Assembly (NCBI GenBank): GCA_946481475.1
Contig: CAMLOB010000083.1
Coordinates: forward strand, 1-10,890
DNA length: 10,890 nt
Direction of reading: 5' to 3'
DNA from: an uncultured Chlorobiota bacterium
GTDB taxonomy: Bacteria > Bacteroidota > Kapaibacteriia > OLB7
Part shown: in pieces, positions 2,975 through 10,890 of the stretch
How positions within the stretch are numbered: the first letter of the stretch is position 1
Layout of the letters: every line of letters begins with the position of its first letter
Made by a program: the position numbers and the translations under genes
Notes under the pieces: model-generated
Databases searched by the model: none
What the model was told of the DNA's origin: nothing
What the model saw: the letters and a program-made list of their open reading frames with translations, nothing else

Positions 2975-2997
2975 CCCGGTATTGTCAGTCGAGCAAT

Positions 2998-3098
2998 TCC
3001 CTGGTGGCTTTTTTGTGTCTCCGCTGCGGCGGATGTCTTTGTGGTAAGATTCACCATCCGCCGCGGCGGACACGAAGGACACGAAGGGACCACCAAGG
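2998..3098. repeat. Palindromic intergenic repeat, copy A
   Basis: An imperfect inverted repeat of about 100 bases. The left arm begins CTGGTGGCTTTTTTGTGTC at 3001 and the right arm ends ACGAAGGGACCACCAAG at 3097, with the axis near 3048. Compared with copy B, this copy carries an extra GC-rich stem pair: CCGCTGCGGCGGATG at 3021-3035 pairs with CATCCGCCGCGGCGG at 3055-3069 with one mismatch. It lies between two converging genes (ends at 2974 and 3106), so as RNA it could form a hairpin on either transcript and act as a bidirectional terminator or 3'-end stabiliser. That role is inference, as there is no clean U-tract. Copies B and C share the GTGTCCTT-GTG core. Confidence 0.85.
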
Positions 3099-3105
3099 AC
3101 GTGAT

Positions 3106-3474
3106 TCAGTCCTGCGCCGGGCGGCCGATCCGGTTGTGTTGCAGCAGCAGCGCGAGCCTCGTCTCCACGAGCAGTTCCTGCAACTCCGGAAGCCCCTCGG
3201 CACCGAACTCCACGCGCATCCGGGGAGCCGGGATGTCGATGGCGAAGTTCCGGGCGCGGCAGTCCTCGTGGGAACATTCCGCGCAGGGTTCATCGGCGAC
3301 GGCCGCAAGCTGATCGACCATGTCGGCAATCTTCTCAAGCTCCCGCTCACGAATGCGGACGACGACCGGGCCGAACTCAAGGATATACCCCGGATGCTCC
3401 GAACACCGCATCACCCGTCCGTTGGGTGATGCGGCGATCGTTCTCAGGCAACACTCGTCGTTATGCGAATACAT
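3106..3474 (-). CDS. Small Cys-rich protein, possibly DUF6686-like
   Basis: A 122-residue protein from the ATG at 3474. I prefer this start because AAGGAG lies six bases upstream. An adjacent ATG at 3477 is also possible, while the ATG at 3495 would place the ribosome site inside the gene. The early segment GRVMRCSEHPGYILEFGPVV (about 19-38) recalls the Bacteroidota DUF6686 pattern, a C-x2-H cluster followed by 'Y-x-LEFG'. I match this from memory and am not sure. Cys8, Cys9, Cys24, His27 and the cluster C64-x2-C67-x4-C72 (EPCAECSHEDC) could bind a metal. The central helix (RIRERELEKIADMVDQLAAVA) and the C-terminal helix are amphipathic. No signal peptide, so probably cytoplasmic. It follows hemS by 135 bases but is separated from it by repeat B, and repeat A lies just past its stop. 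Function unknown; a link to heme or metal metabolism is inferred from position only. Confidence 0.75.
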   Translation of the reverse strand: MYSHNDECCLRTIAASPNGRVMRCSEHPGYILEFGPVVVRIRERELEKIADMVDQLAAVADEPCAECSHEDCRARNFAIDIPAPRMRVEFGAEGLPELQELLVETRLALLLQHNRIGRPAQD

Positions 3475-3480
3475 CATGCT

Positions 3481-3486
3481 CTCCTT
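3481..3486 (-). promoter_or_regulatory. Shine-Dalgarno AAGGAG deciding the start of the Cys-rich gene
   Basis: Read on the minus strand, AAGGAG is followed by AGC and two tandem ATG codons (3477 and 3474). Spacing is three bases to the first and six to the second, so the second ATG is the best-placed start. The open frame itself begins further upstream, at 3495. Confidence 0.65.
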
Positions 3487-3521
3487 TTCATTCATTGATG
3501 ACAGAGTCCCGGAGGATATTC

Positions 3522-3600
3522 CTTGGTGGCTTTTTTGTGTCCTTCGTGTCTTGGTGGTATTTCACCACTAAGACACGAAGGACACAATGAGACCACCAAG
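3522..3600. repeat. Palindromic intergenic repeat, copy B
   Basis: A nearly complete hairpin of about 79 bases: left arm CTTGGTGGCTTTTTTGTGTC continuing to 3560, right arm 3561-3600 ending GAGACCACCAAG. The run TTGTGTCCTTCGTGTCTT of the left arm is matched exactly by the reverse complement of the right arm. It lies in the 135-base gap between the hemS stop (3610) and the start of the Cys-rich gene (3474), both on the minus strand. It could attenuate or end the heme-operon transcript or protect its 3' end (inference). The left arm is almost identical to that of copy A. Confidence 0.88.
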
Positions 3601-3609
3601 AGTATTAAT

Positions 3610-4671
3610 TCAGTCCTCGACCGGGATGCCTGCGATGATCTCCGTCCAGGCCGGGTTCTCCACGATCGATTCTTTCCGGCTGCCGAAGAAGAGAGCCAGA
3701 TTATTTCCGTCGGCGTCGTAGAGTTCCAGCGACGTGACGAAGCCGTCCGAGGTCGGCTTGCACACGATCCAGGCGGAGTCGACTCCCTCCTCACGCATGT
3801 GAAGGTTGAAACCCGGATCAAGCACGTTGTACCAGCCGTGGACCTCTACGAGCCGACGGACCTTTCCGGTGAAGATCTGCATGCACCCGCCGTTGCCGAC
3901 GAAGATCATGATCGGCGTCTCCGTCCCGGCGGCCTGCTGAAGCACGGCGCGATACGCATCCGGGGCAACCCGACAGGCGAACTCCTTGCCGGCCAGCCGC
4001 AACGCCTGCGTCCGGGTGACGCCGAACGTCCGGAGCATGCCGAAGAATTCGTGCGTGTCGGTCATCCCGCTCCAGTGACTGCGGAGTCCGTCGACGTCGA
4101 TCTCTCCGTCCGGACGCTCCTCCTCTCTCTCCTCCACTCTCTCGACCATCTGCTCCGGACTCTGGTCGTCGCTCTTCCAGCGTTCGACAAGATTCTCGAA
4201 GGTATCAACCCCCTCATCATTTTTGAGATAGACCTTGTGAAGAGCCGTTCCCTGACGGTTGAAGAACTGGATGCTCCGGCGAGTGCCGTTCGACGTCTCT
4301 TCCCGCAGAGCAAATGCGGAGTCCCAGCTCTGCATGAAGAGCCGCAGGTCGATCCCCTCCCCCAGCACCATCCCGACGTGCGGATGTTCGAAGCTGGTAT
4401 TCCGGTAGATACCGGTCGTCTCGTGGACGATATACGGGTTCCGGGTCAGGGCCATCACCTTGCCGAGCGATTCGAACTCGGGAATGAGCTTCCGCCAGTC
4501 CCCCGTCAATCGCGTGACGCCGTCGCCGCACTCCGAGGCGATCAGTTCCGCTTCGGAGACGCCGAGCGCATCGGCCGCGTCCCTTCTCCGGACCTTCGGT
4601 TGTTCCGCCCGGAAGGCATCCCAGCGTTCCCGCAACGTGGCGGATTCGGTCCTTTCCATCAGTTCTTCCAT
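3610..4671 (-). CDS. hemS: HemS/ChuS/PhuS-family cytoplasmic heme-handling protein
   Basis: A 353-residue protein with the two tandem structural repeats of the HemS/HmuS family ('hemin-degrading factor'), which bind heme delivered to the cytoplasm and traffic or degrade it. The N-terminal repeat has GKVMALTRNPYIVHETTGIY (70-89), then HPHVGMVLGEGIDLRLFMQSW (96-116). The linker contains an acidic helix (about 160-190). MTDTHEFFGMLRTFGVTRTQ (203-222) contains His207, which aligns with the proximal heme ligand of ChuS/HemS (His193/His196). The C-terminal repeat has IMIFVGNGGCMQIFTGKVRR (254-273) and WYNVLDPGFNLHMR (280-293). Length is normal (about 340-360). GGAG six bases before the ATG fixes the start. 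It lies 59 bases after hmuV and is probably the last gene of the heme operon. Some family members cleave heme and others only chaperone it; the sequence alone does not decide. Confidence 0.93.
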   Translation of the reverse strand: MEELMERTESATLRERWDAFRAEQPKVRRRDAADALGVSEAELIASECGDGVTRLTGDWRKLIPEFESLGKVMALTRNPYIVHETTGIYRNTSFEHPHVGMVLGEGIDLRLFMQSWDSAFALREETSNGTRRSIQFFNRQGTALHKVYLKNDEGVDTFENLVERWKSDDQSPEQMVERVEEREEERPDGEIDVDGLRSHWSGMTDTHEFFGMLRTFGVTRTQALRLAGKEFACRVAPDAYRAVLQQAAGTETPIMIFVGNGGCMQIFTGKVRRLVEVHGWYNVLDPGFNLHMREEGVDSAWIVCKPTSDGFVTSLELYDADGNNLALFFGSRKESIVENPAWTEIIAGIPVED

Positions 4672-4730
4672 ACTGTACTCCTGTTTTCTTCTCTATGATT
4701 GATGTATTGATCTCTCTGTTGTCGCTGTCA

Positions 4731-5588
4731 TCAATTGAATGCGAGATGATGCTTCATCCCCCGCTCTTCCTCAGATTCATTCACCCGACGCACCATCTCC
4801 GACACCCCGCCGATCAGCACCAGAGGTCCGTTGTGATGGGGGTGAGGCATGACGGTTGCCGGGACGTCGAAGACCGATTCGATATGGTCGGGCGTCAGGA
4901 CCTCGTGCGGGTCCCCCTGAGCGGCGATTGATCCTTTCTTCATCAGGACAATCCGGTCGGCAAACTCGGCGGCGATGTTCAGGTCATGCAGGACGGCCAG
5001 AACGCCGACGCCTTCATCCGCCAGCTCCCGAACGATTTTCAGAATCCCCCGCTCCCGCGCCGGATCAAGACTGGCGGTCGGTTCGTCGAGGAAGAGGTAG
5101 CGGTTCGGGACGTCCGGACTCTTGCGGATCTGAACCAGAGCGCGGGCCAGATCGACCCGTTGCGCCTCTCCTCCGGAGAGGGTCGGATAGATTCTGTCGG
5201 CAAAGGCTCCGGCCTCCACGCGGTCCAGCGCGGCAAGGGCGATCTCCGGACCGTTCACCTTTCTTCCTCCCTTTCGGACGTGAGGGGAATATCCCAGCAT
5301 CACAACGTCACGAACGGCAAAGGGGAAATCAAGTCGCGCTCGTTGCGACATCACCCCGCGACGCCGGGCCTGCTCCTCCCGGGTCTTCTCCTCGACAACA
5401 AGATCATCGATGTGGACTGATCCGGTTGTCGGAGTCAGAAGACCTCCAAGCACTTTCAGAAGCGTCGACTTGCCTGCACCGTTCGGTCCGATCAGTGCGA
5501 CGAACTCACCCGGAGGGATCGAGACCGAGACGTTCTGCAGAAGAGGAATCCCACGGCAGAGGAGCGTGATATCCCGACAGCTTACCAC
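4731..5588 (-). CDS. hmuV: Heme ABC transporter ATP-binding protein HmuV
   Basis: A 285-residue ABC ATPase of the siderophore/heme/B12 importer class. The motifs are complete: Walker A GPNGAGKST (34-42), Q-loop Gln82 in GVMSQRARLDF, signature LSGGEAQR (137-144), Walker B YLFLDEP (164-170), D-loop SLD (173-175) and switch His201 in AVLHDLN. It should power heme import with the HmuU permease at the inner membrane. The start is a GTG at 5588 overlapping the hmuU stop by a few bases and preceded by a near-perfect GGAGGTGA; the coupling suggests matched HmuU and HmuV production. The C-terminal tail after about residue 240 (VMPHPHHNGPLVLIGG, ending EERGMKHHLAFN) is longer than a minimal ATPase domain and His-rich. 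Assignment to heme rather than B12 or a siderophore rests on the surrounding hmuT/hmuY/hemS genes. Confidence 0.94.
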   Translation of the reverse strand: MVSCRDITLLCRGIPLLQNVSVSIPPGEFVALIGPNGAGKSTLLKVLGGLLTPTTGSVHIDDLVVEEKTREEQARRRGVMSQRARLDFPFAVRDVVMLGYSPHVRKGGRKVNGPEIALAALDRVEAGAFADRIYPTLSGGEAQRVDLARALVQIRKSPDVPNRYLFLDEPTASLDPARERGILKIVRELADEGVGVLAVLHDLNIAAEFADRIVLMKKGSIAAQGDPHEVLTPDHIESVFDVPATVMPHPHHNGPLVLIGGVSEMVRRVNESEEERGMKHHLAFN

Positions 5589-6676
5589 AGTTCACCTCCG
5601 ATCTCACGGCGCCTGCGAAGCAGAAGCCACAGGAAGAAAGGGGCGCCGATCCCGGCAGTGACGATGCCGATTGGCAACTCGGCCGGAGCCGCCACCGTCC
5701 GACAGAGAGCATCGGCACCGACCACCACGACGGCACCGAGCAACGCCGATCCCGGCAGGAGGAGGCGGTGGTCCGGACCGAGCGTCAGACGGATCAGGTG
5801 GGGAACGACCAGACCGATAAAACCGATCACGCCGGTCATCGCCACCGATGCGCCGACACCGAGAGCCGAGAGAAGGATGACGCCCAGCTTCAGTCTGCCG
5901 ACGTTCACCCCGAGATACCCGGCCTCAGCCTCGCCGAGAGCCAGAGCGTTCAACTGACGGGCCATGAAGGGAAGCCCGACAATGGCGGCAAGAGCAAAGG
6001 GGAGGAGAACCCCGACATTCGTCCAGGTGCCGTTCCCCAGACTGCCGAGTCCCCAGAACGTGATGCTCCGCAACTGCACGTCGGTGGCGATATACGTAAG
6101 GAATCCGGTACCGGCACCGGCCAGCGCATTGACGGCAACGCCGGCCAGCAACAGCGTGGCGACGGAGAGCTGACCGTTGACCGCACCGACCCGATAGGCA
6201 AAGAGGGCGGCAATGAGCGAGCCGAGAAATGCCGAAAAGGAAATGAAGGAGAGCTGCAACGTCCCCTCCATCGAACCGAAGAGGGCTGTCCCACCGACGA
6301 TGGCGGCCACCGCGGCCAGACCCCCGCCGGCTGAAATGCCGATCAGTCCGGGATCGGCAAGGGGGTTGCGGAAGAGTCCCTGCATCGCCCCGCCGCTGAC
6401 GCCGAGCGTCCCGCCCACAAGCAGACCGAGCAGAACGCGGGGAAGACGAATGGCAAGGAGGACATCGGCCTCACGTCCGGTTGCCACATCTCCGAACGGC
6501 AGACCGAGAGCGTTACCGATGACGGCAAGCGTCTCCACCGGCGAGATGCCGATCCCTCCGACACCGACGGCCAGAAGGAGGGTCATCGCCAGCAGCAGTG
6601 AAAGCCAGAGAAGCGGAGTTCCCACCTTCCCTCCCGTTCTGCGGTTCATCGTAACGACAAGCGTTCCCTCACTCAT
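5582..6676 (-). CDS. hmuU: Heme ABC transporter permease HmuU (FecCD family)
   Basis: A 364-residue, very hydrophobic protein of the FecCD permease family; two copies form the inner-membrane channel for heme with the HmuV ATPase. Hydrophobic segments run through the whole length, starting with LLWLSLLLAMTLLLAVGVG (22-40) and consistent with the usual ten helices. Family hallmarks are RLPRVLLGLLVGGTLGVSG (77-95) followed by AMQGLFRNPLADPGLIGI (97-114). The coupling-loop region GEAEAGYLGVNV (about 246-257) and GLVVPHLIRLTLGPDHR near the C-terminal third are also typical. The ATG at 6676 overlaps the hmuT stop (ATGA), with AAAGGAG only just upstream. An ATG nine codons later is an alternative start without a good ribosome site. 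Its 3' end carries the Shine-Dalgarno of hmuV. Confidence 0.94.
   Translation of the reverse strand: MSEGTLVVTMNRRTGGKVGTPLLWLSLLLAMTLLLAVGVGGIGISPVETLAVIGNALGLPFGDVATGREADVLLAIRLPRVLLGLLVGGTLGVSGGAMQGLFRNPLADPGLIGISAGGGLAAVAAIVGGTALFGSMEGTLQLSFISFSAFLGSLIAALFAYRVGAVNGQLSVATLLLAGVAVNALAGAGTGFLTYIATDVQLRSITFWGLGSLGNGTWTNVGVLLPFALAAIVGLPFMARQLNALALGEAEAGYLGVNVGRLKLGVILLSALGVGASVAMTGVIGFIGLVVPHLIRLTLGPDHRLLLPGSALLGAVVVVGADALCRTVAAPAELPIGIVTAGIGAPFFLWLLLRRRREIGGELW
5592..5599 (-). promoter_or_regulatory. Strong Shine-Dalgarno for hmuV inside hmuU
   Basis: GGAGGTGA on the minus strand, three bases before the GTG start of hmuV (six bases counted from GGAGG). It lies within the last codons of hmuU and is the strongest ribosome site in the locus. 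It supports the GTG start and suggests hmuV is translated independently at a good rate. Confidence 0.8.
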
Positions 6677-7638
6677 TCTCCTTTCTCCATTGCCTGTGCG
6701 ATCTTTTTCCGAAGATCAGCAACTGCGCCGGGAAGGCGGGGGCCGAGTCCGAGCAGGTAGAGGTCATCCATCACAATGACCCGCTTCGCTTTCCCTGCGG
6801 ATGTCTGGTCGATGCCGGTTGTCTTCAGCAGACCGTCAATCCCCCCCGCACTCCCGACGCCGCTTTTCGGAACCAGAAGAATATCGGGATCGGCCGCCAC
6901 CAGACCTTCGGCGGTCAAGGGACGAAAACCTTCGTAGCCGACCGCGGCATTTCTTCCTCCGGCCAGCGAGATCATCCGCTCGGCCGATGTGTTGCTTCCG
7001 GCAGCGTGGAGCGAGCCGCTTCCGCGTGCGTAGACAAAGAGAACCGAAGGCTTTTCTTCTTCCGGCTTCTTCACATCCTCAGGCAGCGCGGCAATCACCG
7101 AGTCGGCCAATCGCTTCCCCCGCTCTTCCTCGCCGAGTCCGCGCGCAACCGCCAGAATTTTCTCCCGCACTCCATCCACCGTCGGCTCCTCCGGAACGAT
7201 CACCACCGGAATTCCCACACTCCTGATCTGCTCCAGCGCCGCCGACGGCTGTGCCTCGGATGATGCAAGGACAAGCGTGGGATTCAACGCAATGATGCTC
7301 TCGGCCGAGAGTGTCCGGAAGTAACCGACCTGTTGCAGTCGTGAGGTCTGTTCCGGCCAGGTGCTGGTGATGTCGACCGCAATCACCTGATCACCGTGAC
7401 CGAGGGCAAAGACCGTTTCGGTGACGCTGCCGCCGAGAGAGATGATCCGTTCGTTCTTTCCCGCTGCTCCGGTCGTGTCATCGGCCCGATCCCCGGGTTG
7501 CTCTCCCTCCCCGCCACAGGCGGAAAGAGAGAAGAGAAGGAGCAGACTTGTCAGGGGGAGCATCATCGAAAGGATGGATCGGTTTCCTCCCGATCGTCGG
7601 TCAATGTTCCCGAAAAGGGTATGTAAAAAGATCGCCAT
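6673..7638 (-). CDS. hmuT: Heme-binding periplasmic lipoprotein HmuT
   Basis: A class III (BtuF/HmuT-type) substrate-binding protein that receives heme in the periplasm and gives it to HmuUV. The signal region has LTSLLLLFSLSAC with a clean lipobox, so it is probably inner-membrane anchored. The mature part begins with an acidic linker, then the family block ERIISLGGSVTETVFALG and QQVGYFRTLSAE. The Tyr in VGY aligns, by my reading, with the heme-ligand Tyr of Yersinia HmuT. Later blocks are SLHAAGSNTSAERMISLAGG and, near the end, VIVMDDLYLLGLGPRLPGAV, both typical of heme-type members. The start is uncertain. The frame is open up to a GTG at 7695 overlapping the hmuY stop; ATGs occur at 7638 and at 7566/7563, none with a good ribosome site. 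I chose 7638 (321 residues) because it includes arginines before the hydrophobic core; the 7566 start gives 297 residues. Confidence 0.9.
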   Translation of the reverse strand: MAIFLHTLFGNIDRRSGGNRSILSMMLPLTSLLLLFSLSACGGEGEQPGDRADDTTGAAGKNERIISLGGSVTETVFALGHGDQVIAVDITSTWPEQTSRLQQVGYFRTLSAESIIALNPTLVLASSEAQPSAALEQIRSVGIPVVIVPEEPTVDGVREKILAVARGLGEEERGKRLADSVIAALPEDVKKPEEEKPSVLFVYARGSGSLHAAGSNTSAERMISLAGGRNAAVGYEGFRPLTAEGLVAADPDILLVPKSGVGSAGGIDGLLKTTGIDQTSAGKAKRVIVMDDLYLLGLGPRLPGAVADLRKKIAQAMEKGE

Positions 7639-7691
7639 GGACAGTTGTTGAAGATTATCGAATACGTTCGTTATGGTTCTTCCGACCCCGA

Positions 7692-8561
7692 TCACAACCG
7701 TTGCAGCCGAAAGGCCGGATAGCCTTTCTCCCCTTCCCCGTTATAGAAATCGGTGAAGACAAGTTTGTAGGTGAAGCCTTCGGCGTCGCGGATCACATAG
7801 ACCGGCGACCGGATGATGTAGCCTTCGGTAAAGTCATAGAACTTCCAGTCGTAGCCGACCCCATCGAGTCGGGAGGAGTAATCGAGCGATGTGACGGTCT
7901 CGACGGTGACCTCATCAAAACTTCGTACCGAATCGACGGCCGCCGTCGTGTTGTAGCGGTTCAGAAGAACGCCTGTCACGCTGTAGGGGGTGAACTCCGG
8001 ATCGTAGAAGAGATGGGTATAGCGGGTGAAGAGAATATCCCACTGATCTTTCGGCGGCTCCACCTCTACCGGCTCTCCCGAGGTGAAGGAGAGACCGACG
8101 AGGTTGCGGGAGGGATCGCGGCGAATCATTACGGTTCGATCCATACTGTTATCCAGCAAGGCGAAGCGGACATACCAGCCGGTTGCGTCTGCTCCCAGCA
8201 GAACGATCTTCACAAATCCGAGCGACGTTCCGGCGGCGTCATATCCCCGGTCGACGACATAGACGTGTCCGCGGGAGTCGACGGATTTTCCTTCCCCCCG
8301 CCACCAGATTCCGATCGCCGTCGAGTCAGAGTTACCGGAAGGATGATCGTACTTCCACTCAAGCCCGGATAGGGAAGTCACCGCCTCGAACTCCTGCAGA
8401 CCGGCATCGGCAGCCGACATGATCTGGGCACCGTTCAGGACGATGCGATACTCTCCTTCATCACACAGAAAGCCGAGATCCCAGTCGGTGATCTTGCCCT
8501 GTTTCACCACAGTTCCGGTTCCGAGATCAAAGTAGAGTCGTGTGTTGTAGTCGCTCCCCAT
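7692..8561 (-). CDS. hmuY: HmuY-family heme-binding protein, cut off from its signal peptide
   Basis: A 289-codon frame from the ATG at 8561. HmuY proteins are outer-membrane lipoprotein hemophores that pass heme to a TonB receptor. Family features seen here are KITDWDLGFLCDEGEYRIVL (23-42), HVYVVDRGYDAAGTSLGF (99-116), PPKDQWDILFTRYTHLFYDP (169-188) and the C-terminal IRDAEGFTYKLVFTDFYNG, then GYPAFRLQ. Coding clearly continues upstream of this ATG: the same frame reads YPIAPFDRGGVSDVVVG from 8612, as expected for the start of the mature domain. Two consecutive in-frame TAA codons (8618-8613) precede that, and just before them lies a lipoprotein signal (separate entry). No GTG or TTG exists between the stops and 8561. 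As written, the protein would be cytoplasmic and N-terminally trimmed. The body has no frameshift, which suggests recent inactivation, an unusual expression route or a sequence error. The gene lies between the receptor and hmuT. Confidence 0.85.
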   Translation of the reverse strand: MGSDYNTRLYFDLGTGTVVKQGKITDWDLGFLCDEGEYRIVLNGAQIMSAADAGLQEFEAVTSLSGLEWKYDHPSGNSDSTAIGIWWRGEGKSVDSRGHVYVVDRGYDAAGTSLGFVKIVLLGADATGWYVRFALLDNSMDRTVMIRRDPSRNLVGLSFTSGEPVEVEPPKDQWDILFTRYTHLFYDPEFTPYSVTGVLLNRYNTTAAVDSVRSFDEVTVETVTSLDYSSRLDGVGYDWKFYDFTEGYIIRSPVYVIRDAEGFTYKLVFTDFYNGEGEKGYPAFRLQRL

Positions 8562-8687
8562 CCCGACAACAACGTCGCTGACGCCGCCGCGATCGAACGG
8601 AGCAATAGGATATTATTACGGAATGCAGCCGATTGCGATCAGTCCAGGCAGCAGAGGAAGGGTGAGCAGCCTTAGAGGTTTTCTTAA

Positions 8688-8720
8688 AAGTCTCGGATTG
8701 CAGAAGTCTCGAATTGCAGA
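8688..8720. repeat. Two-copy 16-bp tandem repeat
   Basis: AAGTCTCGGATTGCAG at 8688-8703 is followed directly by AAGTCTCGAATTGCAG at 8704-8719, with one difference, and then by a further partial copy starting AAGTCTC at 8720. It lies between the left outer inverted repeat and hairpin copy C and looks like part of the same composite element. Confidence 0.8.
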
Positions 8721-8731
8721 AGTCTCTGTTG

Positions 8732-8811
8732 CTTCGTGGCTTCTTTGTGTCCTTTGTGACTTCGTGGTGAGATTTACCACAAAGTCACAAAGGGCACGAA
8801 GAATCACCAAG
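8732..8811. repeat. Palindromic intergenic repeat, copy C
   Basis: An imperfect hairpin of about 80 bases: left arm CTTCGTGGCTTCTTTGTGTC continuing to about 8772, right arm from about 8773 ending GAATCACCAAG. The core CCTTTGTGACTT-GTGGT is shared by the left arm and the reverse complement of the right arm. It belongs to the same family as copies A and B (GTGTCCTT-GTG core, GTGG ends) but is more diverged. Unlike A and B it lies within an operon, between the receptor gene and hmuY, where a hairpin could reduce expression of downstream genes (inference). Confidence 0.85.
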
Positions 8812-8944
8812 TGGTAGAGCATGTCCCGGATGCTTGTCTGTGACTGCTCAGACCACAGAGCACACAGGCTACTTTTAAGAAACCCTCTTAGACTCCGGTT
8901 TGCCGAAGCACTTTTTGTTCCGGTCACCACGACAGAAATTCTTT

Positions 8945-10890
8945 TCATCTCTCCCCTCCATTCCCTTTCATGCGAAGCGTCAGGTCGACAAAGAAGGTTC
9001 GTCCCCAGGCGACCGGCATCGTCTGATTCGGGCCGGTGTGCGCCCCTCCATCCACGCCGGAGGAGACCACATCGGTGACGTCAAACAGATTCTTTCCTCC
9101 GGCCCGGAGCTGCATAACGCCATCGAAGAGCGTATAGCCCGCGCTGAGATCCAGCGTGTGATATCCTTCAACATGCCGTTCCAGCAGATTCCCCTCGTCG
9201 TCCAGACTGTAGGAGGAGAGAGGACCGGTGAACTTGTAGAGGGAGGAGAACTTCAGCGATCCGAAGGGGATATAATCGGCCTCGACGGTCACCTCCGGAG
9301 AGAAACTGAAGGCGGAAAATCCTTCCGCTTCGGAGAGTCCGTTATCCCGCCCGATTGCGGCAATACCGACCCGTCCGGACACCCGCCCGGCTCCGTATTC
9401 TCCGGTCAGCGTTCCTCCTGCGGAACGGAAGTCTCCCACGTTCACGTAGGAGTAGAGATCCCCTTCGACGTTGGCCAGCGTGATCAGATCGGAGACGTCG
9501 TTGTAGAAGAAGTTCAGTCCGATCTCGACGGCATGTGTCTTCTGCGACCGATTCCAGGTAGCGGAAAAGGAAAGGTTGTCGGACGTCTCGGCTCTCAGGT
9601 CTTCATTCCCTTTGATGTTGTGGTTGATATCGACAAAGGAGAAGAAGAGATCGCGCAACGAAGGGGAGCGGAATCCCCGCCCCCACGATCCGCGGAGAAC
9701 GAGGTTCGCCGCCGGACTGAACAGGATATTCAGTGAAGGGATCGGCGGCGCGTCGTAGCGGGTATTATAGAGAAGTCTGAGACCGGGACGGAGGGTCAGT
9801 CGTGCAAAGGGACGTAGAGCGACCGTGCCGAATGCGGCATATTCCCCCACACTTTTTTCTCCGTCGGCAATGCGATCCCCTTCGGCAACTTCTCCCCGGG
9901 CTTCAATGCCCCCCTGCATATCGGAGAGCAACGCATCTTCTTGAAGCGAGGTATGATGATAGACGCCCCGACCGTTCCAGGCGCGAACCGAAGAGATGTC
10001 CTCGTCCGAGGGATTCGATGTCTGCTCCAGCGTCACCAGATTCTTCAGGAAGGTGCTGGTCGTGCGTCGGTAGAATGATGTCGCTCCCGTCAGTTCCACT
10101 CCTCCCCCCCGCCGGTTCAGCGGAAGGGTGGCCGTCAGCGTGTTGGTCAGCCGAAAGGTCGCATAGGAATCATCGAAGGCGGTTTCGCCGTAGGGGGCCC
10201 GGGGCATTCCGCGGTTCAGGATATATTCGTCGAAGACCCGGCTCTCAAGCGCCAGCGAAAGTGAGCCGAGGTACTGCTTCAGTTTCAGCTTGCCGAAGGT
10301 CTGCTCCCGCGGCTTCCACTCCTTCACGCGCCCGGTCTCTCCGTCGGAAAAACCGGCAAAGTAGTGGCGTCCCCCCGAGACTTCCGCGACGGTGGAATTG
10401 ATCCTTCCGGCAACCGAAAGATCGGCGTCCCAGACGCCGACCGACTCGTGATGGAATCCCCCCTCGGCCCTCCATGAGGAACCGACCGGGCGCCCGGTGA
10501 TGAGATTGACGACACCGCCGAGAGCATCCGTTCCGTAGAGGACCGAGAGGGGTCCTTCGATAATCTCCACCCGCTCGACATCGGCCACCGGAAGCTGTGC
10601 CGGATCGATATTCTCGCCGACACGTCCGATGACCGGAACACCGTCAACCAGAATCTTGACATGCTGTCCGGAAAGTCCCCCGACCCTCAGAGCCCCACCG
10701 AGAATATTGTCCTGATCGATTCTGACGTTGAGTTCTCCGGACATCAGGTCGCGAAGATTCTGTGCCGCCCGGTCCTCGATCTCTTCGCGGTCGATCACCC
10801 GGACGTTGTAGACCGAGCGGTCACGGGAGATGGGAACGGCCTGTCCGGTCACAACCACACCGCTACCATATATCTCGTCTTCGGTAAGGA
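8945..10890 (-). CDS. hmuR: TonB-dependent outer-membrane heme receptor (HmuR-like), 5' end missing
   Basis: About 648 codons are visible; the frame is open through the right edge, so the signal peptide and any N-terminal carboxypeptidase-regulatory-like domain lie outside. GVVVTGQAVPISRDRSVYNV begins the plug, followed by LRVGGLSGQHVKILVDGVPV and the plug end VERVEIIEGPLSVLYGTDALGGVVNLIT. The remaining ~520 residues are a 22-strand barrel with aromatic-rich strands, ending in GRTFFVDLTLRM and a short extra KGNGGER. Counting from the GTG codon at 10858, the barrel has GFRSPSLRDLFF (395-406), His413 in FVDINHNIKGNEDL and the GNEDL box (417-421). In known heme receptors (HemR, ShuA, HmuR) a heme-binding His lies between the FRAP and NPNL boxes, so this layout supports heme as substrate. 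Its stop overlaps the ATG of the hmuY 5' frame, so both were probably coupled. Any iron-responsive promoter would be beyond the window. Confidence 0.93.
   Translation of the reverse strand, partial: LTEDEIYGSGVVVTGQAVPISRDRSVYNVRVIDREEIEDRAAQNLRDLMSGELNVRIDQDNILGGALRVGGLSGQHVKILVDGVPVIGRVGENIDPAQLPVADVERVEIIEGPLSVLYGTDALGGVVNLITGRPVGSSWRAEGGFHHESVGVWDADLSVAGRINSTVAEVSGGRHYFAGFSDGETGRVKEWKPREQTFGKLKLKQYLGSLSLALESRVFDEYILNRGMPRAPYGETAFDDSYATFRLTNTLTATLPLNRRGGGVELTGATSFYRRTTSTFLKNLVTLEQTSNPSDEDISSVRAWNGRGVYHHTSLQEDALLSDMQGGIEARGEVAEGDRIADGEKSVGEYAAFGTVALRPFARLTLRPGLRLLYNTRYDAPPIPSLNILFSPAANLVLRGSWGRGFRSPSLRDLFFSFVDINHNIKGNEDLRAETSDNLSFSATWNRSQKTHAVEIGLNFFYNDVSDLITLANVEGDLYSYVNVGDFRSAGGTLTGEYGAGRVSGRVGIAAIGRDNGLSEAEGFSAFSFSPEVTVEADYIPFGSLKFSSLYKFTGPLSSYSLDDEGNLLERHVEGYHTLDLSAGYTLFDGVMQLRAGGKNLFDVTDVVSSGVDGGAHTGPNQTMPVAWGRTFFVDLTLRMKGNGGER

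What the first reader, a model, noticed from the sequence alone, without database searches (positions are those of the whole stretch)
8562..8690. hmuY split by two consecutive in-frame TAA codons just after the lipobox
Seen directly: on the minus strand one frame reads the lipoprotein signal LLTLPLLPGLIAIGC, then I-P, then TAA TAA (8618-8613), then YPIAPFDRGGVSDVVVG and the whole HmuY body, all in the same frame. The signal and the mature domain are thus parts of one gene separated only by tandem ochre codons. TAA ends three other genes here (DinB, HIT, hmuU), so it is not a sense codon. No ATG/GTG/TTG lies between the stops and residue 1 of the downstream frame, so a secreted lipoprotein cannot be made without readthrough or repair. 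All other genes of the heme locus are intact, so this looks like specific, recent loss or switching of the surface hemophore. Two adjacent stops are hard to explain by one sequencing error.
Basis: partly seen in the sequence, partly recalled or inferred. Interest (0 to 1): 0.7.

Follow-up and report, generated by a model that had tools for sequence, protein, structure and literature searches.

The report
Copy-specific stops in heme lipoprotein gene
Two stop codons cut a heme-uptake surface protein gene in this one sequence, but an otherwise identical public copy is open there, so they are probably an error or a very local change, while a small mobile element sitting in frame in the same gene's leader was overlooked.

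Summary
In detail: on the minus strand TAA TAA (8618-8613) stands in frame between a lipobox and a HmuY (PF14064) body. It is one gene: in 116 of 119 listed relatives the lipobox cysteine aligns in the same protein. But public protein P0001 (418 aa) matches the window's frame at 415 of 418 residues and differs only at three adjacent ones, the two stops and the next codon. The nearby HemS protein is 100% identical to a database entry. So the stops mark this copy, not the lineage. Three clustered changes and nothing else look more like a sequence error than gene decay; a real, very recent variant is not excluded. P0001 carries it too, so even the open copy has its lipobox cysteine at residue 108, against a median of 19 in relatives, and may export poorly. 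In-frame fusions of such elements are known (PMC10969869, passages).

The parts
8945..10888 (-). TonB-dependent heme receptor (hmuR-like), 5' end beyond the window; ends in TGA 8947-8945
   Evidence: PF00593 E 1e-27, PF07715 E 1.5e-20; coordinates; stop
8946..8948 (-). probable native hmuY start ATG, overlapping the receptor's TGA (ATGA), purine-rich GGAGGGGAGAG just upstream
   Evidence: the same 4-base overlap in relative L029 (receptor 4176-6428, hmuY 3178-4179)
8887..8891 (-). left 5-bp flank CTAAG (probable target-site duplication)
8676..8886 (-). 211-bp MITE-like palindromic element; inverted ends 8886-8871 and 8691-8676 (15 of 16 alike); with one flank adds 216 bases = 72 codons in frame
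   Evidence: z -7.40, 0 of 200 shuffles as stable; 2 matches to the end motif against 0.04 expected
8671..8675 (-). right 5-bp flank CTAAG
8741..8803 (-). core palindrome inside the element, a dispersed repeat
   Evidence: (28-nt arms, 89% complementary); related stretches in 17 of 395 genomes of the phylum sample
8619..8670 (-). rest of the lipoprotein signal up to the lipobox cysteine (8627-8625) and I-P
8613..8618 (-). TAA TAA in frame, at lipoprotein positions +4 and +5 after the cysteine
8610..8612 (-). third codon (TAT, position +6) that differs from public copy P0001
7692..8609 (-). HmuY mature domain; first in-frame start after the stops is ATG 8561
   Evidence: PF14064 E 2.8e-18; starts
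6673..7695 (-). periplasmic heme-binding protein (hmuT-like); real start probably further in
   Evidence: PF01497 E 4.2e-35
5582..6676 (-). FecCD permease (hmuU-like)
   Evidence: PF01032 E 2.8e-84
4731..5588 (-). ABC ATPase (hmuV-like)
   Evidence: PF00005 E 6.7e-27
3610..4671 (-). HemS/ChuX-type heme protein; 100% identical to database entry P0121
   Evidence: PF05171 E 4.9e-78

Best explanation
hmuY here is one lipoprotein gene, translated from ATG 8948 right behind the heme receptor. A 211-bp MITE-like element jumped into its leader in frame, so the leader became 72 residues longer; that is real and is shared with a public copy. The tandem TAA is a change of this copy alone, one clustered patch of three codons, and is most likely a sequence-level error (base calling, assembly or later handling of this copy) rather than a property of the organism. 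Shown: frame, stops, the identity to P0001 outside three residues, the element's ends, flanks and frame. Inferred: that the patch is an error, and that the element weakens export.
For: P0001 (sources ncbi and ena) equals the window's frame at 415 of 418 residues, the three others being adjacent. If three differences fell at random on 418 codons, three neighbours in a row would come up about 3 times in 100,000 (own arithmetic). HemS next door is 100% identical to P0121; P0121 and P0001 both have a longest contig of 13060 bases. No database entry listed or 21 is a window-encoded truncated form (only HemS came back with the '-' that marks the window's own proteins). No stop was seen inside the matched HmuY stretch in any of the 10, 6 and 9 places listed. 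Element; a partly similar peptide in another context, P0241 (52% over 67% of the 110-aa piece).
Against: Error is not shown: no reads were available, and two adjacent stops plus a third changed codon are unusual for a consensus error. P0001's DNA could not be fetched, so silent differences are unknown. The database is clustered at 90% identity, so a truncated form could be hidden in P0001's cluster (2 member sequences); clustering is visibly imperfect (P0116 and P0117 are 99.7% alike), so neither presence nor absence is firm. P0121 lies on 5 contigs and P0001 on 2, which leaves room for contigs with another hmuY. A gene whose leader already carries an element could well be decaying for real.
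Confidence: 0.6

Rival explanations
1. The stops are real: a very recent inactivation in one strain, made by a single multi-base event, in a gene whose leader had already been hit by the element. HmuY would be a 110-residue peptide plus at best an untargeted body from ATG 8561; the receptor and transporter would work without the surface hemophore.
For: The sequence as given; the leader is already abnormal (cysteine at residue 108 against a median of 19 in 116 relatives), so selection on it may be relaxed; 5 contigs carry HemS but 2 carry P0001.
Against: No other difference in 415 residues and none in HemS; three neighbouring changes at once; no second copy in the window that could have served as template within 3 mismatches over 13 bases; over 9 bases one 1-mismatch match at 2430-2438.
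Confidence: 0.32
2. Programmed switching or readthrough: TAA TAA is bypassed in some cells, so HmuY is made conditionally.
For: The frame stays open on both sides.
Against: TAA ends three neighbouring genes; two stops in a row are a poor readthrough site (general knowledge); relatives have sense codons there; no Rfam match in the window.
Confidence: 0.03
3. The leader belongs to a separate short lipoprotein and HmuY starts elsewhere.
For: The 110-residue ORF 8948-8616 is closed by a stop.
Against: 116 of 119 listed relatives have the lipobox cysteine in the HmuY protein itself; P0001 spans both; the last 110-aa search found 1 protein, not a free-standing lipoprotein of this kind but an element-derived peptide.
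Confidence: 0.02

Closest known systems
HmuY-like hemophore lipoproteins (PF14064) of Bacteroidota
   Same: Domain, lipobox cysteine, acidic residues after the cysteine in relatives, heme receptor and heme ABC genes beside it
   Different: Leader lengthened by an inserted element; this copy has two stops at +4 and +5
MITEs that fuse in frame with host genes, such as Rickettsia palindromic elements (review PMC10969869, passages)
   Same: Short, palindromic, inverted ends, identical short flanks, in-frame insertion that lengthens a host protein
   Different: Sits in the n-region of a lipoprotein signal; no parent transposon or family identified here
Lipoprotein export signal (LES) of Bacteroidota (PMC5080379, abstract and passages)
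   Same: Acidic residues at +4, +5 (and +6) after the cysteine, the very positions of the stops and the third changed codon
   Different: The basic or polar residue at +3 or +2 of the Capnocytophaga motif is P or I in the window's closest relatives

Membership tests
HmuY (PF14064) | HmuY domain above Pfam cut-off | tested here: met
   66.9 bits against 27
HmuY (PF14064) | lipoprotein signal with cysteine joined to the domain | tested here: not met
   In this copy two stops part them; in public copy P0001 they are joined
HmuY (PF14064) | TonB receptor and heme transport genes alongside | tested here: met
   similar order in L029
HmuY (PF14064) | binds heme | not testable with these tools
   no assay
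MITE | terminal inverted repeats | tested here: met
   15 of 16; 2 matches in the window against 0.04 expected
MITE | target-site duplication | tested here: met
   CTAAG on both sides; boundary chosen after inspection, 5 bases only
MITE | short and without transposase | tested here: met
   211 bp; the 110-aa frame through it has no Pfam match
MITE | several copies in the genome | tested here: inconclusive
   No genome held. Core repeated in the window and in 17 of 395 genomes (2 candidates scored per genome), but no match reached the element's ends; P0241 looks like a copy at protein level
MITE | moved by a related transposase with the same ends | not tested
   no parent element sought
Programmed stop-codon readthrough or reassigned TAA | TAA read as sense elsewhere in the genome | tested here: not met
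   TAA ends DinB, HIT and FecCD
LES-bearing surface lipoprotein | acidic pair at +4/+5 after the cysteine | tested here: not met
   stops there in this copy; E or D at +5 in 117 of 119 relatives, 2 gaps

The most novel reading that the evidence does not exclude
The stops are real and arose in one multi-base event that hit exactly the three codons of the surface-export signal in a hemophore whose leader had been remodelled by an in-frame mobile element, so that one strain of a population lives off a heme receptor without its hemophore while its otherwise identical sister keeps it.
Probability: 0.12. Interest if true: 0.5.

Novelty: new member of a known kind. Interest (0 to 1): 0.25.

Why it matters
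It shows that a striking 'split gene' in a single metagenomic sequence can be unique to that copy, and that a protein database is a quick test for it. What remains is a modest but concrete case of a small mobile element inserted in frame in a lipoprotein leader, which makes it testable how long and how odd an n-region the lipoprotein export route tolerates. If the stops proved real, strain-level loss of a shared surface hemophore would bear on cheating in heme uptake.

Tried and rejected
Rejected: reassigned TAA (three genes end in TAA); separate short lipoprotein (P0001); structured RNA or recoding element (no Rfam match at gathering score); promoter or terminator in the element (none found in 8550-9000); a local template for the patch (nothing within 3 mismatches over 13 bases; one 1-mismatch match to the 9-mer at 2430-2438).

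Led nowhere: the window's genome is not held. The only genome-contig scan gave 7 loci at 28-44% identity, no close relative. A 20-base element pattern matched 2 viral contigs, but both are a phage gene sharing 21 bases by chance; a second pattern matched none. In a sample of 395 genomes of the phylum, 6 had HmuY at E 1e-60 or better, best identity 46%; in 123 genomes of one order, 9 at 1e-65 or better, best G422 at 53%; G422's family holds no other genome. The element was absent from 5 relatives and from 122 of 123 genomes of the order, the one match being 32 bases of the core. Literature: searches gave no paper, in the listings that I saw, on an element in a HmuY leader or on tandem stops in HmuY; this is no proof of absence.

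Full report
What is there. On the minus strand a frame runs from ATG 8948 to 7692 and is cut only by TAA TAA at 8618-8613. Before the stops it reads a lipoprotein signal ending in IGC-IP, after them the HmuY domain (PF14064, 66.9 bits against a cut-off of 27). Around it lie a TonB receptor (8945 upwards, cut by the window's edge), a periplasmic binding protein, a FecCD permease, an ABC ATPase and a HemS protein, an ordinary heme-uptake locus. TAA also ends FecCD, DinB and HIT, so it is a stop here. The first start codon behind the stops is ATG 8561, inside the body.

One gene. Of the 120 hits listed (of 305 found), 119 besides P0001 were compared: the lipobox cysteine aligns in 116, with 3 gaps, in the same protein as the HmuY domain. 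Their cysteine is at residue 19 in the median (quartiles 18 and 21; lowest 5; highest 40 but for P0067 at 91). The columns of the stops are acidic in 86 of 119 (first) and 117 of 119 (second, 2 gaps), that of the third changed codon in 38 of 119. These are positions +4 to +6 after the cysteine, where the lipoprotein export signal of Bacteroidota keeps its acidic residues (PMC5080379, passages seen).

The public copy. P0001, a 418-residue protein from ncbi and ena sources, equals the window's frame everywhere but at the two stops and the codon behind them: 415 of 418 residues. It has sense codons there. HemS of the window is 100% identical over its length to P0121. P0001's and P0121's longest contigs are both 13060 bases long, so this is in all likelihood the same locus of the same organism. 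The change is therefore private to the window's copy or to part of its population. Three neighbouring changes with none elsewhere in the protein are not the pattern of a gene drifting after loss. Neither the 289-residue body nor the 110-residue leader peptide of the window came back as an entry of its own, but clustering at 90% could hide them, and P0001's cluster has 2 members. P0121 lies on 5 contigs and P0001 on 2, which leaves room for other versions. I put a sequence-level error first (0.6) and a real, very recent variant second (0.32). Reads would settle it; none were at hand.

The overlooked element. Between ATG 8948 and the lipobox lies a palindromic stretch, 8886-8676, 211 bp. Its ends are inverted copies of each other (15 of 16 bases; 2 matches in the window against 0.04 expected), both are flanked by CTAAG, and the strand folds at z -7.40, better than all 200 shuffles. 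With one flank it adds 216 bases, 72 codons, in frame and without a stop. Its core (8741-8803) is itself a palindrome related to intergenic stretches at 3519-3600 and to dispersed repeats in 17 of 395 genomes of the phylum sample, where only two candidates per genome were scored and no match reached the element's ends. P0241, a 110-residue protein on another contig, is 52% identical over 67% of the leader ORF and resembles the outer parts of the element, so it is probably a second copy. This fits a MITE; in-frame fusions of such elements with host proteins are known, the Rickettsia palindromic elements above all (PMC10969869, passages seen).

Native start and effect. ATG 8948 overlaps the receptor's TGA as ATGA and has GGAGGGGAGAG before it; relative L029 (G422, 53% identity) has the same four-base overlap of receptor and hmuY. 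So 8948 is probably the old start; the leader would have been 36 residues to the cysteine (108 less 72, arithmetic), near the upper end of the range in relatives. In the open copy it is 108. In-frame starts within the element exist (8822, 8810, 8807, 8780), of which the nearest still puts the cysteine at residue 52. Whether such a leader is exported is not known; I infer that export is weakened, which would relax selection on the gene and gives the rival reading (a real second hit) its weight.

Verdict. Observation confirmed; 'loss or switching' not shown; the stops are probably copy-specific error; the in-frame element is the solid finding and is a new case of a known kind.

Noticed in passing
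window 2997-3100 and 3519-3600: Intergenic relatives of the element's core palindrome (D1, I1-I3; 3519-3600 also found by blastn).
   Followed up: partly
P0067 (protein), relative of HmuY: Lipobox cysteine at residue 91 and a leader with NRKPETV repeats: possibly another repeat inserted in a HmuY leader.
   Followed up: no
L029 6437-7720 and L001 505-1956: A second HmuY-like protein with a tail that looks like a type IX secretion sorting domain (recalled, not tested), beside the heme receptor in L029 and before hmuY in L001.
   Followed up: no
HmuY relatives P0002-P0120, position +5 after the cysteine: E or D in 117 of 119 with 2 gaps: a very constant acidic residue, as in the lipoprotein export signal.
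   Followed up: partly
G228:C14:23061-23983: Four neighbouring matches to the element's core, an array of the dispersed repeat.
   Followed up: no
L029 1677-2753: In this relative the HemS-like gene lies between hmuY and the binding protein; in the window HemS lies last, behind the ABC ATPase.
   Followed up: no
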